Assembly (NCBI GenBank): GCA_941918925.1 | Contig: OW799237.1 | Location: forward strand, 3,577,201-3,641,200 | Reading direction: 5' to 3' | Source of the DNA: Phyto melanocephala | Lineage: Eukaryota > Arthropoda > Insecta > Diptera > Rhinophoridae | DNA length: 64,000 nt | Shown here: piece after piece, positions 2,608 to 46,937 of the stretch | Position numbering within the stretch: position 1 is the stretch's first letter | Layout of the letters: every line of letters starts with the position of its first letter | The notes under the pieces: model-generated | What the model was told of the DNA's origin: nothing | Database searches by the model: none | Seen by the model: only the letters and a program-made list of their open reading frames with translations | Program-made: the position numbers and the translations under genes

Positions 2608-3472
2608 TAGGGAGTTCGATTATTCGACATTTTTAAGAAACCGGTTTTCAAATAGTTTGAAATTCAGAATTAAAGAAAAAACCGGTTAACCGGTCGAATA
2701 CATAAAATATAATTCTTTCTTATACCCATGACAGAGATACATATATAGGTATGAACTAGTTTGTTTTATGGTTTAATTGCATTTTAAGTTAACACAAATT
2801 CAATGGCATTATTATAAAATACCGTTAACTTTGTAACAAGGAGGTTGTAATAATGAAAAATATTAAAAAGTCACTTCACTGCTCACTGTAGTCACATTTA
2901 TCTTTTACTAACATTAACTTTGTAGGCGAGCTGTAATAATGACCCTTTGTGTGCCAAACTATTTTAGTATACAAGTCAAATGTTATCAGAGATATTAGTA
3001 AAGCTATGGGTAGTCTTTAGTACAAGTCGCTAGATTTCGTAGAAGCAAAATATTATGAAATTCGAAAATGAGATCAAAAAGTATTGCAAAGTACAATAAG
3101 TACTGAACACCTGATAATCACGCCAAATTATAAGCGCAACAACGTATTAAATACCTGATCTCCATTTAAAACAAATAATATTTAACCTAATTGTTCTTAT
3201 TTTGAAACAACAAAAAAAATTCTTACAATATTATGGAAGAGTATTTAATAAAGTTTTTGATTTTTGGAAATTTTTTAAGTAATAAAAATTGTATGTTACG
3301 TTTGGTTACAAAAATAAATGAACATACAACTAAAAATGAAAAAAACCGGCTTCTGTGAGTAAAAAAACCGGTGTATTCGAAATTTGAAAAAATAACATTT
3401 GGAAAAAACCGCCAGCTGAAACAGTAAAAAACCGAGTTTTCCACCGGTTTTAAAACCGAGTCGATCACCCTA
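2608..3472. mobile_element. hAT-type non-autonomous element, copy 1 (865 bp)
   Basis: It begins TAGGGAGTTCGATTATTCG and ends GAGTCGATCACCCTA, flanked by the perfect 8-bp TSD GTGTTTAG (2600-2607, 3473-3480). It lies inside the hAT element 2410-5812. A second, independently inserted copy is at 39179-39934 with its own TSD; both carry repeated AACCGGT/ACCGGTT words near both ends and share most of the interior. No coding capacity is visible. The TAGGGTGATCGA ends and 8-bp TSD indicate the hAT superfamily. Confidence 0.9.
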
Positions 3473-3543
3473 GTGTTTAGCTTATGTATGTATATGTTTC
3501 TTGCGATTGCGTATACTTATGTCCAAAATACATTAAATAAGGT

Positions 3544-4899
3544 GTATGCTGTGCCGAATTCAATCAATCAATGTTTTAGCCTAATAATTGATGAAACTAC
3601 AGATATTTCTATGGAAAAATGTTTGGTGCTGGTGGTTAGGCAGTTTGATAGTTGCAAAGAAAACACTGTTGATAGCTTCTTTCGGTTAGTGCAGCAAAGC
3701 GATGGTTCTGGAGAAGGAATTTGTAACTCCATATTGTCATCACTAAAAGAAAATCAAATTCCACTTGTTTAAAGCATTTAACGTATATTTTATTATTTCA
3801 ATTTTAATGAAATAACTTAACATTTTAATTGTAACGTAGTCCCATTTCTGAATAATTGTGAATTGATTTATTGTAAAACCGCTTTATTACTTTAAACTGC
3901 TTTATAACTTAACGATTAATAAATTGCATTAACGATTTTTTGACGAAACATATGAACGGAAATTGCTGAGGCGACCTAGGGATTTCGGGACTGTCTTTGA
4001 CACGCACTCGATCTGTTAAGAAGTCTCCTAGCTCACCTCAAGCGTATTGCGCTCAAGGAATCGTCATTGTGAAGAAAATTATCAGTAACCAAAAGTTTGT
4101 ATAATAAATTACAAATGTGAGTACAATTAAAAAAGCATAGCAGTGTTATTGTTTAATTAAGTTGAAACAGGTTCCTCTCCTGTCCCCATTTAAATATCGC
4201 CTAAATTCCCTAGGTATTCAATAAAGGCAAGGTATAACGCTTGTTCAAATCACTCTTTGTGTATTCCTGATAATACATATTCGTGTTAACATTCACTCAT
4301 ATAGGGTTGAATCTTCTAAGGATTTATTAATAAATTCATTACTCTTAGTTGTCAATTTAAAGTATGACCTCTCAATGTCATCTTTAAACACCACTAAAAA
4401 TTTAATAGGTCTTGCTACAGACAACGCATCTACAATGGTGGGGAAAATAAATGGTGTAGCAACAATATTAAAGAAAAAGATTCCGCATTAATTTCATATC
4501 GGCTGTGTGTGCCATTCTATAAATCTAGTGAACAATGCATCATTATCTTGCATTCCAAATGACGTTGAACAGTTACTTAGAAAGGTTTTAAAGTATTTTA
4601 AGAGTGCAAAAAGACAACACGATTTGAAGGAGCTGCAAGGTATTTTTGATGTACCTGAACATAAAATACTAAGGCTAAGTGATACTAGATGGCTATCATT
4701 TAAATCTGTTGCAACAAGAATTCTGGAGCAGTGGTCGGTTCTGCAGCACTATTTTATCCGGGCACAATTTGAAAAAAAATGTGCTTCTAATTTAAAAAAA
4801 ATTAGTGTTATTCTAGACTCTTTGTCGCCTGCAAACAAAACATATTTAAAATTTCTAACTTATATTTTGAAAACTATGAACAAATTTAACAAAAAGTGA
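3544..4899 (+). pseudogene. hAT transposase remnant (DDE region), interrupted
   Basis: A fragment of a hAT-superfamily transposase, the nuclear enzyme that cuts and joins element ends. The first part contains SLIIDETTDIS, with a catalytic Asp codon at 3590-3592, then SDGSGEGICNSILSSL. It breaks off after NQIP at 3761-3765. Directly beyond the inserted LTR-like block the protein resumes with NLIGLATDNASTMVG (second catalytic Asp codon 4420-4422) and then GCVCHSINLVNN and LSDTRWLSF, all familiar from this family. Joining the two parts needs one base restored at the insertion point. An in-frame TAA at 4489-4491 and the loss of N- and C-terminal regions confirm that it is dead. The catalytic Glu region was not confidently placed. 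Frames: 3473-3772 is one, 4399-4899 another. Confidence 0.85.
3766..4390. mobile_element. Solo-LTR-like insertion, 625 bp, in the hAT transposase
   Basis: The block begins TGTTTAAAGC and ends TCTTTAAACA, so it has the TG...CA termini of long terminal repeats plus a 9-bp inverted end. It is flanked by a perfect 5-bp duplication CCACT (3761-3765, 4391-4395). Removing it brings the two halves of the hAT transposase together, with one base missing. An AATAAA-type polyadenylation motif lies near 4220. Termini and TSD length fit a solo LTR, for example of a BEL/Pao or Ty3 element (inference). A short inverted-repeat DNA transposon is the alternative. Confidence 0.7.
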
Positions 4900-7612: not shown

Positions 7613-9755
7613 CTATAAAATTTTATTTTGAAATTTTTATATTAATTACTGGCTTCGTACTGAGTGTGTTTTGCAGGAAAGTTGAAAAAACTTTCATTGT
7701 GCGTCTTTTTTTGTACAATATAACTTAACAATTACCTTCACCAGTGGTAATGATGTTTAATTACTAGTTCTTGTTCCGGCATCAGAATTGCAGGGTTATT
7801 ATTTGCTGGTATATATGCTTGTTTGCAAAGTGTTGTAGTCGTAGAGAAAATATTTAATTGAAATAATTTACTTTATGCTTTTGGGAGTTTTGGGAATTAA
7901 ATTTGCACTCTTAAATGCATACATGTGCACTGTACACACTCACATAAACATACATATGTATGTATACACATACTTTAATTTAAATTTAAACATTAAATGA
8001 AAATATTTCTACATACATACATACATATATAATGTATGTTTACAGACTCAAGCACATACATACATATTTTTAGACACATTTATGTACAAAATTATTTGTA
8101 TGAATATTGAATTGAATCTTAATGTGCCAAACCGAGTTCAGTCAGTCATTTAGTTCTTCATACAATCCATCAACTTTTGCAATCGTAATACAAAATAATA
8201 TTGAGTTCAATATGTTGTGTTCAATATATATTTATTAATTTATTATACAATATTTACCAGAGGCTCGCTAACACACATGCACACTTGTAATTATATCAAC
8301 TCAAATTTATGAGTATTTTAAAATGCAACTGTCACAGAGTTAGACACAAACATACAATAAATATTATATGAGTGTGTATGCTTATATTAAATTATTGTTT
8401 TTTGCTGTTTTGCCAAAATTATTTTAGTTTATTTAGGTTTGATTTGGTTATAATAATAATTGCTTAAAACTAACAGAATTAAGTAATGACTGTCAAATAA
8501 TTCATATTTTTCATTATTCAATTTGTTTTCAATTGGAATTTGTATTGTTAATATACTCCATGCGTAGTGAGAAATATATATTTTTTTGTTAAAGAAACTT
8601 TTGGTGTTTTTTTTTTAAGAAGTTTCAAGCAAAATCTGTAATTTTGGATGTTTTATACAAATTCTTTTTATATAGAAAATCAAGATAATTTTCTTTTTGT
8701 AGAAAATTTTTGTTAATTTCACTTAACACTTTTGCATCAGTTTTAAAAAGTCATTAATTTTTAAACTAAAGATAGTCTTCAATGTATAGTTCTCCGAACC
8801 TAGCTGTCGGCGTTCATGATGCTACTACCACTGGGTTTTATATGGAGCTTTTGCAATTAATACTAGTGCAAGATGGGCGTCATGCTTAGGATTAAATGAA
8901 ACCTAAATAGGAAGATCACGCTAATCAAACTCTGTTGCTGTACCGTTAAACAAAGACAGCAATGACTTCTACATGTTTTATCCCGAGTTTTTTTGGATGT
9001 CGCATTTAAATCATGGTTTCGAAAACTATAGAAATATTTCTGTATTATGATTGAGTGGACTTTGCCGACTTTGCTCCTAAGGCAAACGATTGAAAAATGA
9101 TTTTTTATGTTTTTATTTGTGTTCTCATTATGTACCAAATATTTTTACTATCAACAGCTTTTGTTAATCGCTATTTGTGTACACATACTGCTAATAAAGC
9201 AACTAGAACTTGCAATAATTTTTCTAAAACGTTTTCATATAGCACAATTACGAATTACAATTAGTCAAAAAGAGAATTTTAAATAACTTACTATTAACTG
9301 ATATTAAAGCTTTGCAAATATGATTAAAAAGTTTTAAAAATCTATATATATATATATTTGAGATACGTAAAAGGGCAATTATATAAAAGGCCTTCACTAT
9401 AGCGACCTTTTGAAAGCTAATATTTAAACAAATAAATTCCCAGGCCTTCGTTAATATCAGAAACAAGTTAATGAGTTGATTAATTAAAGTTATTATTTTT
9501 TTAATCAAATTTAATTAAACAAAAATTATTTACATTGGAAACTGGGTGTGATCAGCTCGAGTAATAAACAAATTTTGTCAGTTAGACAAAGAAAGTTCGT
9601 CCTGTAAGAAATTAGTGTAATTTTTAGTAACACATGGCGTAAACCAAAGTTTTATGACTTTTATATTATATTTGGCTTTAAAAAATACAACAACAAAATT
9701 TTAATAAAATTAAAAAGCAAAAAAAAAAAAAAAAAATTAAAAACTAATAAATTAT
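7613..9755. other. AT-rich DNA without recognised gene
   Basis: Dominated by poly-T/A tracts and CATACATA-type simple repeats (7930-8070). The part at about 8790-9060 is less AT-rich and may be an old unidentified repeat. The minus-strand 91-codon frame across it has no recognisable motif. An AT dinucleotide run lies at about 9343-9357. Confidence 0.45.
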
Positions 9756-12459: not shown

Positions 12460-12465
12460 CTTTCT

Positions 12466-12538
12466 CGCCCGAGCAGGGACTTGAACCCTGGACCCTTGGA
12501 TTAAAAGTCCAATGCTCTACCGACTGAGCTACCCGGGC
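12466..12538 (-). tRNA. tRNA-Lys (anticodon TTT)
   Basis: The minus strand folds as a 73-nt cloverleaf. The acceptor stem GCCCGGG pairs with CTCGGGC (one G-T pair) and is followed by discriminator G. The D arm is GCTC...GAGC, and the anticodon stem TTGGA/TCCAA encloses CTTTTAA, giving anticodon TTT (lysine, AAA/AAG codons). The T arm CAGGG-TTCAAGT-CCCTG is intact. The box A-like TAGCTCAGTCGG and box B-like GGTTCAAGTCC internal Pol III promoters are present. There is no intron and the CCA is not encoded, as expected in eukaryotes. A T7 terminator follows. The gene appears intact and functional and stands alone; no second tRNA was seen nearby. It is the only likely host gene in the window. Confidence 0.96.
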
Positions 12539-13138
12539 ACTTATTTTCTCTTCGCTTAGAACAGCCCACATCCCAACACGTTATACTAGAAAAAAACAAC
12601 GCACACACAAACACGTTACTTGCTTGTTCATAACATGAATAATGTTTGGTTTACACATTACAAACGAGCGTTACGAGTGATATTTTGCAAATGTTCTGTT
12701 ACTTCTACAATAAAAATTTAACACAAAAAAAAAAATTGCCACACATTAAACAAACTAATTGCAAATAGTTTTTAATATTTGTTTTTGCACACATGGAATT
12801 TTGTTTTTATGAGATTAAATACCTACAATGAGATAACAATAAATTCAATTAACTGGAAATTGATACAGTTTATTATTATTATTATGTATTAATTTTAACT
12901 TGTTGCTTTTATTTGATTTAAGATTAATAGCAATAATGAACACATTCATATTAAAAAAATATGTTTATTTTCCAATTATTGTTTTTGCTAATTGTACACA
13001 GTTTTTTTTTGGATTAAGTGTTATAATTTTTTTGAAAAAATATTTGCCTTATTCATAATCAATTTTACACGAAGTTTATTTATACGTAGGCTTATTGCAA
13101 TTATAAAACTTATTGTTTTTTTGCACGAATTGCTAACA
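12539..13138. other. AT-rich spacer upstream of the tRNA
   Basis: No further tRNA or coding gene seen. Poly-A/T and ATT runs (about 12872-12890) only. Confidence 0.4.
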
Positions 13139-26895: not shown

Positions 26896-26977
26896 TTCCA
26901 TCCCTGCACAAATAAATGAAATCAAAGCGAATTAAGAAAAAATATATAAAGTATGCAAGGCATATTCAAACATTCCA

Positions 26978-27199
26978 TACATACTTCTTAGGAGATGTTT
27001 TCTCTCAAGGCCAATTCGTATATCAGGGATGGAAAAGTTGTTATGTTATTTATAATTTAAAAAAATTAGTGGCGCAAAAGCAACATATATACAAAAATTT
27101 GGTACATACTTCTTAGGATATGTTTTTTCTCAAGGCCAATTTGTATATCAGGGATGGAAAAGTTTTTATGTTATTTATAATTTAAAAAAAAATTAAAAA
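26978..27199 (+). repeat. 125-bp tandem duplication
   Basis: CATACTTCTTAGGA...CTCAAGGCCAATTCG...CAGGGATGGAAAAGTT at 26980 onward is repeated 125 bp later (27105, 27149) with few changes. CAGGGATGGAAAA resembles a hAT terminus, and the inverted version TTTTCCATCCCTG lies just upstream near 26895-26907. The duplication may therefore derive from a hAT-type repeat, but no TSD could be defined. Confidence 0.65.
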
Positions 27200-27317
27200 T
27201 AAAAAAATTAAAATTAAATTAGTTAATAATTAATTTATTATCCAACCAGTACCTCTAAATTAAATTTTTAATACCGAAACCAAACTCATATTGTCCATTC
27301 CTGTATTAATAAATGAA

Positions 27318-27383
27318 TTTAAGGCGAATTGAACTAATTTTGATATTATGCCTCCCCATAAGCTGAGCTGAATTCGCCTTAAA
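27318..27383. repeat. Short palindrome with AAGGCGAATT ends
   Basis: TTTAAGGCGAATT (27318-27330) is the exact reverse complement of 27371-27383. The core AAGGCGAATT is also the tip of the P-like element at 45925-46899. It could be a tiny internal-deletion derivative of that family; no TSD was seen. Confidence 0.55.
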
Positions 27384-45916: not shown

Positions 45917-46196
45917 GTTGGGATCAAGGCGAATTCATTATCAGGTGAAGTTATTAAAGCAGCTGTTTATCAGCTGAGCACTCTTTTTAATATTGAAATG
46001 TCAAATTTTGTTTGTGTTTTTATGTGTGCTTCTACTTTTTTATTGTTTACATTTGTGGGCGCCATTAATTGAAAAATTTTTTAAATTGTGAAAAATTAAA
46101 AATTTTAAAAAAAGAGATAAAAAAATTGTAGATTGTGAAAAATTTAATAAAACGTTAAAAAAATTAAATAAAACAGAGTATTTTTATTTGTGAATA

Positions 46197-46317
46197 ATGC
46201 GTGTGTGCTCTTTGTGCAAAAAGAAATATTTGAAGGGCAATGGAACTTTGTTCTATGTGCCCAGAGATCAAGCCACCAGAAATAATAGGTGGAGCGAAAT
46301 TTGTGGAGTGAATTTCT
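46197..46317 (+). pseudogene. Truncated THAP domain (P-like transposase N-terminus)
   Basis: From ATG at 46197 the frame reads MRVCSLCKKKYLKGNGTLF, then YVPRDQATRNNRWSEICGVNF. This shows the first half of a THAP zinc finger: C4 and C7 (C-x2-C), the conserved Pro (P22) and Trp (W32). The second metal pair (C-x2-H) is absent because the sequence switches to the captured EGF-like segment near 46312-46318. The frame then runs to a TAA at about 46359 without THAP similarity. THAP domains bind DNA at element ends in P transposases. Truncated and presumably non-functional; if expressed, it could at most yield a short partial peptide. Confidence 0.75.
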
Positions 46318-46725
46318 TGTCAACAGTGTGGTACTGGAGCTACATGCAACACAGTAAATAATCATCGTTCCGTTTGTGAATGTCCCAAGGGTTACATTGG
46401 TAGTCCATATACTGAATGTCGTCCAGAATGTTATGGTGATTCGGATTGTCCAGCTGGTAGACCAGCTTGTTTCTATGGTTTTTAGGGTGAATGCCTTAGC
46501 ATTGGTGAATGTCAAGATAATAAGGCTTGTATTAATCCATGCATAGGTAAGTGTGGTTCCGGAGCCGAATGTGAGCCAAAAGCTCATTTGGCTGTCTGCA
46601 AGTGTCCTCACGGAACATCAGATGATGCTCTAATTTCTTGCCGTCAATATCGTACTTATCCTGTTGCCAAGTATCATGGTTCATCATCTAGTTCTTGTAA
46701 TTTTTATTTAATTGCATCTTTTTAA
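46312..46725 (+). pseudogene. Captured EGF-like, dumpy-type extracellular gene fragment
   Basis: The frame beginning at 46312 reads CQQCGTGATCNTVNNHRSV, CECPKGYIGSPYTEC, RPECYGDSDCPAGRPAC, a TAG stop (46483-46485), then GECQDNKACINPCIGKCGSG, AECEPKAHLAVCKCPHGT and SCRQYRTYPVAKYHGSSS, to TAA at 46723-46725. The regular cysteine spacing, CxCPxGYxGxPxxxC and NPC...CGxxAxC motifs are those of EGF/DPY modules in large insect matrix proteins such as dumpy. Only the single TAG interrupts about 135 codons, so the capture may be fairly recent, or codons were conserved until it. It is out of frame with the THAP start. The antisense 155-codon open frame here is a shadow. Confidence 0.8.
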
Positions 46726-46937
46726 TATTTTATTTTATACAATTTATTATGTAGTATATGTAAACAAACGTGTTTTTTATTTTTGATTTCGTAAACAATT
46801 TTTTGACAGTTCAAGTTAGTTTACACTAACAAAATACACGTTGTATTTTTCACTTTGTAGTTGTTTTAGCGACGAGTTCACCTTATTGAATTCGCCTTGG
46901 TTGGGATTATAAAAATGGCACATAAGTGTATTCTGAG

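What the first reader, a model, noticed from the sequence alone, without database searches (positions are those of the whole stretch)
45925..46899. P-like transposon that captured a dumpy-type EGF exon
One element, exactly delimited by CAAGGCGAATTCA ends and the TSD GTTGGGAT, contains both a truncated THAP start (transposase-derived) and about 400 bp of an EGF/DPY-like cysteine-rich segment. Gene capture is well known for Pack-MULEs and Helitrons. I am not aware of it being typical of P-superfamily elements, so this could be an undescribed 'Pack-P' case. The captured part has only one stop in about 135 codons.
Basis: partly seen in the sequence, partly recalled or inferred. Interest (0 to 1): 0.9.

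Follow-up and report, generated by a model that had tools for sequence, protein, structure and literature searches.

The report
P element carrying host gene fragment
A cut-and-paste jumping gene of the P-element family picked up a piece of an ordinary animal gene together with parts of its introns, trimmed it, and spread it to about a hundred or more places in the genome, much as plant Pack-MULEs do.

Summary
Window 45925-46899 is one element: 13-bp inverted ends, exact 8-bp TSD, truncated THAP start, EGF/DPY-like segment.

It belongs to a family. Of 43 copy loci examined, 33 have both ends and 31 of those have 8-9-bp TSDs. A search lists 122 places besides the donor with captured EGF exon sequence.

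The donor is a multi-exon EGF gene (G000:C2:73.315 Mb), not the dumpy-like giant locus (C4:93 Mb). Consensus and donor differ at 6 of about 396 captured bases. Genomic DNA was captured: most copies keep an intron's last bases, L058 keeps two whole introns, and other copies keep further collinear donor pieces.

An 8158-bp copy with exact TSD carries THAP, P-transposase relics (PDB 6p5a, 3.2e-63) and the same fragment. This ties the family to P elements and makes the small copies its internal-deletion derivatives. THAP and EGF are out of frame, so no fusion protein is expected.

Verdict: a natural, recent, high-copy 'Pack-P' family. Pack-TIRs and laboratory P-element capture are known, so it is a new variant of a known kind. 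A second multicopy element in this genome carries a RuvB-like 2 fragment. The capture mechanism, active transposase and RNA effects are untested.

The parts
45917..45924 (.). left target site duplication GTTGGGAT
   Evidence: other copies have other TSDs
45925..45937 (+). left terminal inverted repeat CAAGGCGAATTCA (matches the right end to about 25 bp with one gap)
45938..46196 (+). A+T-rich 5' leader of the P element, shared with the 8158-bp copy
   Evidence: 22% G+C; consensus 1-409 to the 8158-bp copy at 97.1%
46197..46317 (+). truncated THAP coding start of P transposase (P-derived part; the frame runs on to a stop at 46359-46361)
46316..46479 (+). captured exon A part of the donor EGF gene (donor 9538-9700 in L056+L057); CT at 46316-46317 shared by both sides of the junction
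46480..46485 (+). TTTTAG: last bases of the donor intron before exon C; gives the in-frame TAG stop
46486..46701 (+). captured exon C part of the donor (last coding exon); the window copy lacks 15 bp of it relative to the 20-copy consensus
46702..46886 (+). 3' part of the P element
46887..46899 (-). right terminal inverted repeat (CAAGGCGAATTCA on the minus strand)
46900..46907 (.). right target site duplication GTTGGGAT

Best explanation
A non-autonomous member of a P-element family that captured host genomic DNA and then multiplied. Step 1 (inferred from collinear pieces): a transposase-bearing P element took up about 1.9 kb of an EGF-repeat gene at C2:73.315 Mb, most likely when a break in the element was repaired with template switching. 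Step 2 (forms seen; order inferred): deletions removed intron and exon stretches and joined exon A to the end of the intron before exon C. Step 3 (forms seen; order inferred): further deletions removed the transposase, giving copies of about 1.1 kb with a whole THAP segment, about 1.0 kb like the window copy, and about 0.75 kb. Step 4 (TSDs shown; transposase source not identified): these were moved in trans to many sites in a recent burst. The captured DNA is passenger DNA and makes no THAP-EGF fusion protein.
For: TIR and TSD of the window copy. 31 of 33 two-ended copies have TSDs. 20 copies lie 1.1-2.5% from their majority sequence; star-like tree of 41 copies and the donor. Donor with introns and 6 differences in about 396 bases. 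L058 with two introns: 738 aligned bp at 95.8% to the donor, joined to the P 3' end, sharing two derived bases with the family. Further donor pieces in the 8158-bp copy and L026 (49 bp, 98%) and in L070 (20 bp, 100%; 29 bp, 93%). The 8158-bp copy: TSD TATGAGAC, THAP, PF21787, PF12017 at its cut-off, PF12596, PDB 6p5a 3.2e-63. 122 exon C places besides the donor.
Against: No complete EGF-free element with the same two ends and a transposase was read; L065 has both ends and no EGF but may be a deletion product, and L068 has a different 5' end. None of the 100 listed 5' ends has one of the 150 listed PF21788 matches on its strand within 9 kb downstream, so the active transposase is not identified, and the 8158-bp copy looks decayed (GTP-binding domain 17.1 bits, under its cut-off). 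L058 lacks its 5' end, so its TSD cannot be tested. Shared letters at the junctions are short (1-2 nt), so the repair model rests on weak evidence.
Confidence: 0.9

Rival explanations
1. The EGF-like segment is a native part of this P element, and the host gene got it from the element.
For: 82 of the 95 exact 5' ends have EGF exon C within 9 kb downstream, so it is common in this subfamily.
Against: The host gene has more exons and open introns around the captured part. Homologous proteins in other data sets carry the undeleted exons. The element carries an intron end and a deletion inside the sequence. 14 of 21 THAP-bearing places tested have no exon C match within 12 kb.
Confidence: 0.02
2. 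Capture went through RNA (retro-copy of a spliced or partly spliced transcript) rather than genomic DNA.
For: The small copies lack the introns and exon B, which looks superficially like processing.
Against: The join is not an exon-exon junction: exon A is cut in mid-exon and six bases of the next-but-one intron remain. L058 keeps both introns. Donor stretches with no open frame upstream of exon A are kept in the 8158-bp copy and L026.
Confidence: 0.02
3. Same family, other capture mechanism: fork stalling with template switching before transposition (the FoSTeST model), or end bypass in which a P element near the donor used a distant end, instead of gap repair.
For: PMC8277862 (section 9) favours FoSTeST for multicopy Pack-TIRs. 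The donor lies on the same contig as L058 and the 8158-bp copy, but 42-44 Mb away.
Against: Captured DNA sits inside the element between transposase relic and 3' end, which simple end bypass does not predict. Nothing here separates gap repair from FoSTeST.
Confidence: 0.4
4. The chimera is, or recently was, a coding gene: a THAP-only repressor or a THAP-EGF protein.
For: L025 has an open 70-aa THAP frame that passes the Pfam cut-off. Small P elements such as KP encode repressors (PMC7776569, passages).
Against: Of the six long copies examined (L021-L025, L059) only L025 keeps that frame. In the window type THAP lacks its last zinc ligands and EGF is in another frame with an intron-derived TAG. 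Donor-consensus differences (4 silent, 2 amino-acid) are too few to test selection.
Confidence: 0.06

Closest known systems
Pack-TIRs of animals, with the multicopy Ssk-FB4 family of Drosophila melanogaster (Tan et al. 2021, PMC8277862; sections 4, 7, 9 and passages read)
   Same: Host genomic DNA inside a TIR transposon, amplified with distinct TSDs, donor still in the genome.
   Different: That survey: 370 cases, 323 of them hAT or TcMariner; four multicopy, none in the insect reference genomes; Ssk-FB4 has four copies. Here: a P element, 122 places with exon C, with intron-bearing, transposase-bearing and deleted forms together in one genome.
P element of Drosophila and zebrafish P-like elements (PMC7776569, passages)
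   Same: THAP, HTH, RNase H and C-terminal P transposase domains, 8-bp TSD, internally deleted small copies; zebrafish elements also have 13-bp TIRs.
   Different: 13-bp ends against 31-bp in the Drosophila P element; carries a captured host gene fragment.
DNA capture by P elements on artificial transposase activation (as described in PMC8277862, section 4; original papers not read)
   Same: P element taking up foreign DNA by gap filling or end bypass.
   Different: Natural and amplified genome-wide.
Pack-MULEs and other Pack-TYPE elements of plants (PMC8277862 section 4; PMC8616336 passages)
   Same: Works alike: gene fragments caught from genomic DNA and multiplied by a TIR transposon.
   Different: Other superfamily and kingdom; here one donor was seen in this family.

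Membership tests
P superfamily of DNA transposons | 8-bp target site duplication | tested here: met
   31 of 33 two-ended copies (8-9 bp); 8158-bp copy 8/8; 5 of 5 two-ended loci among L061-L066
P superfamily of DNA transposons | short terminal inverted repeats | tested here: met
   13 bp exact, about 25 bp with one gap
P superfamily of DNA transposons | transposase with THAP, HTH, RNase H and P C-terminal domains in an element with the same ends | tested here: met
   8158-bp copy: PF05485 27.4 bits, PF21787 3e-17, PF12017 at cut-off, PF12596 4.8e-9; PDB 6p5a 3.2e-63; GTP-binding domain only 17.1 bits, under cut-off
P superfamily of DNA transposons | movement by a P transposase | not testable with these tools
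   inferred from TSDs; active source not identified
Pack-TIR (host gene fragment inside a TIR transposon) | non-transposon donor identified elsewhere in the genome | tested here: met
   C2:73315509-73316361
Pack-TIR (host gene fragment inside a TIR transposon) | captured DNA enclosed by TIRs and TSD | tested here: met
Pack-TIR (host gene fragment inside a TIR transposon) | related transposon without the captured DNA | tested here: inconclusive
   L065 has both ends and no EGF but may be secondary; 14 of 21 THAP places show no exon C within 12 kb; no complete EGF-free transposase-bearing element was read
dumpy as donor | best match at the giant EGF/DPY-repeat locus | tested here: not met
   C4:93.03-93.105 Mb (taken as dumpy by inference) 38-49% to P0005; donor on C2 97%
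hAT superfamily | hAT-type transposase in an element with these ends | tested here: not met
   the one transposase-bearing copy read has P domains; the 8-bp TSD alone would not exclude hAT
Helitron | no TSD, no terminal inverted repeats | tested here: not met
   TIRs and TSDs present

The most novel reading that the evidence does not exclude
P-type elements in this lineage act as a natural gene-shuffling system comparable to Pack-MULEs: at least two multicopy families in one genome carry host gene fragments (an EGF gene; RuvB-like 2). The many near-identical copies of the donor's last exon may feed piRNAs or siRNAs that act back on the donor gene.
Probability: 0.4. Interest if true: 0.8.

Novelty: new variant of a known kind. 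Interest (0 to 1): 0.66.

Why it matters
In the 100-genome survey of PMC8277862 (section 7) animal Pack-TIRs were mostly single copy and none was found in the insect genomes. Here a P element naturally captured genomic host DNA that now lies in 122 listed places, and donor, intron-bearing form, transposase-bearing form and serial deletion products survive together in one assembly. Capture, trimming and amplification can therefore be read step by step and tested in relatives. It also gives a test bed for whether captured fragments turn small-RNA silencing against the donor, as described for maize (PMC8616336, passages).

Tried and rejected
Rejected readings: native EGF part, retro-capture, dumpy as donor, hAT, Helitron (see rivals and membership tests). 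A spliced THAP-EGF fusion was considered because a GT lies on the THAP side and an AG at 46325-46326, but CAACAG there is donor coding sequence (Gln-Gln) and the stretch between is 19 nt, so it was dropped. A '5-bp microhomology' at the exon A/exon C join in my notes came from overlapping BLAST ends; the letters show about 1 nt. My note that no listed 5' end lies within 20 kb of a PF21788 match was made by eye and was wrong: two do (10.97 and 16.56 kb), and none has one on its strand within 9 kb downstream. My note that about half of the exact 5' ends were EGF-free was also wrong: 82 of 95 have exon C. Phage and plasmid collections gave no match. The search for RuvB-like 2 host genes (PF06068) did not complete. 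What is not in print rests on searches in an open-licence library. Papers: PMC8277862 abstract, outline, passages and sections 4, 7, 9; PMC7776569 and PMC8616336 passages; all others search listings only.

Counts and what was left out: one search used 43 of the 60 loci then fetched (L001-L040, L058-L060); L041-L055 (overlapping cuts of the same places and of the donor) and L056-L057 (donor) were left out. In one search 40 of 1198 candidates were scored. The 122 places are 124 typed rows of the 150 listed (the other 26 lie in the C4 cluster), merged when less than 400 bp apart (123), minus the donor; 150 of 319 candidates were scored. One search lists 100 of 719 places, sorted by mismatch, so the 95 exact ones are complete. 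One search tested 21 of the 40 matches; the other 19 are 6 EGF long copies and 13 matches of 38-39 bases. Six of 20 aligned copies lack the exact string TAGGGTGAATG at the intron-derived stop and were not studied further.

Full report
What is there. The element is exactly delimited: 975 bp at 45925-46899, inverted ends CAAGGCGAATTCA, TSD GTTGGGAT. An ATG at 46197 opens a THAP start. From 46316 the sequence is EGF/DPY-like, in another frame, with one internal TAG. In the window copy Pfam sees EGF_3 and Dumpy_DPY under their cut-offs and WAP just over its cut-off.

It is a family. The window lies in a 740-Mb assembly, G000. A DNA search gave 49 matching stretches, with 40 of 1198 candidates scored. 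Of 43 loci examined, 33 have both ends, and 31 of these have a TSD (at least 7 of 8 letters, or an exact 8-9-bp match within 1 bp); the target letters lean to GT....AC. Twenty copies lie 1.1-2.5% from their majority sequence. A tree of 41 copies and the donor is star-like, with 5 of 39 inner branches well supported. A protein search with the donor's last exon lists 122 places besides the donor and outside the C4 cluster. The exact 26-bp 5' end occurs 95 times: 82 have EGF exon C within 9 kb downstream and 13 do not. With up to 2 mismatches it occurs 719 times, against 0 for the reversed pattern.

The donor. Homologous proteins from other data sets show the ordinary gene and suggest where its introns lie. 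The best match to P0005 in G000 is C2:73315509-73315841 at 97%. In the coordinates of L056+L057, consensus 408-570 equals donor 9538-9700 with 1 difference, and the exon C part up to the breakpoint has 5 more: 6 in about 396 bases. The exons are open, with introns between them, and the last exon ends in a stop just past the captured part. The giant EGF/DPY locus on C4, which I take to be dumpy from its size and repeats, matches P0005 at 38-49%.

Capture and trimming. In the consensus exon A runs straight into the last bases of the intron before exon C (TTTTAG|GGTGAATGCC), so the DNA was genomic, and about 413 bp between are missing; about 1 nt is shared at the join. L058 (C2:29.298 Mb) has the missing part: 738 aligned bp with both introns and exon B at 95.8% to the donor, joined to the P 3' end. 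It keeps a longer 3' donor edge and shares two derived bases with the family against the donor. Its 5' end is missing, so its TSD cannot be tested. The 8158-bp copy and L026 also carry donor 8447-8495 (49 bp at 98%; 45 of 45 letters in the 8158-bp copy), and L070 carries a 20-bp exact and a 29-bp 93% donor piece. The first capture therefore probably spanned about 1.9 kb.

The transposase-bearing form. L027+L067 make an 8158-bp element with both ends and TSD TATGAGAC. It has a THAP (27.4 bits), PF21787 (3e-17), PF12017 at its cut-off, PF12596 (4.8e-9), and a 228-aa stretch that matches Drosophila P transposase 6p5a at 3.2e-63. The GTP-binding domain is seen only in part (17.1 bits, under cut-off), and repeats fill much of the interior, so I do not claim activity. 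The captured DNA lies between the transposase relics and the 3' end and already has the exon A/C deletion. The genome holds at least 150 PF21788 matches, all listed ones over the cut-off, but none lies on the same strand within 9 kb downstream of a listed 5' end. The active transposase is thus not identified.

Derivatives. L021-L025 and L059 keep the whole THAP segment and then donor sequence. The window type has lost about 100 bp more, joined at CT. L062-L064 and L066 (about 750 bp) join the THAP start to exon C, and L069 is a further form. L065 has both ends, TSD AATAGTAC and no EGF, but may be a deletion product. Of 21 THAP-bearing places tested, 14 have no exon C match within 12 kb. L068, one of them, has no EGF in the 3.5 kb read but also no recognisable ends there.

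Function. THAP and EGF are out of frame in the window copy, and the EGF frame holds the intron-derived TAG. Of the six long copies examined, only L025 keeps the 70-aa THAP frame. I read the captured DNA as passenger; an RNA-level effect on the donor is possible and untested.

Comparison. Tan et al. 2021 (PMC8277862; sections 4, 7, 9 and passages) report 370 Pack-TIRs in 100 animal genomes, 323 of them hAT or TcMariner, four multicopy, none in the insect genomes, plus the four-copy Ssk-FB4 family; they cite P-element capture on artificial activation. The P-element review (PMC7776569, passages) gives 8-bp TSDs, and 13-bp TIRs for zebrafish P-like elements. This is thus a natural, high-copy P case: a new variant of a known kind, as far as the open-licence papers searched can tell.

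A second case. Nested in L065 is a 768-bp TIR element (ends CAAGGTCTATTAAATAAGGTCTG, TSD GTTTACAC) with an open 88-aa frame that matches TIP49 (95.1 bits) and RuvB-like 2 (8.5e-26). All 40 scored candidates of 802 match essentially its full length at 96-100%, itself included. Its superfamily and donor were not established, because the search for the host gene did not complete.

Noticed in passing
L065:567-1334 (G000:C3:25373378-25374145): A second TIR element (TSD GTTTACAC) nested in an EGF-free P-like copy carries a RuvB-like 2 (TIP49) fragment; 40 of 40 scored candidates of 802 are essentially full length at 96-100%.
   Followed up: partly
genome-wide, e.g. C1:97855276, C3:45865558: At least 150 matches to the P-transposase GTP-binding domain PF21788, all listed ones over the cut-off, some in open frames of 695-844 aa: a P-element-rich genome.
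   Followed up: no
window 26923-27381: Several near-copies of the TIR motif (CAAGGCCAATTCG, TAAGGCGAATTGA and others) within 460 bp; 8 matches in the window against 1.09 expected. L008's element sits in a similar CAAGGCCAATTCG stretch.
   Followed up: no
L070 (G000:C2:40294300-40295060): A rearranged copy in which the element's 5' half lies inverted next to its 3' end, with small donor pieces.
   Followed up: partly
8158-bp copy (L027+L067), element positions about 3200-4560: Direct and inverted arrays of a short tandem unit fill the interior of the transposase-bearing copy.
   Followed up: no
window 4507-4899: 130-aa open frame that, from recall only, looks like a hAT-type transposase fragment.
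   Followed up: no
P0004, P0008 (NCBI records named Eumeta japonica): Close relatives of the donor gene come from records named as a moth; contamination by another insect is a guess, not tested.
   Followed up: no
window 12465-12539: tRNA-Lys (TTT) gene; the only Rfam match over its gathering score in the window.
   Followed up: no
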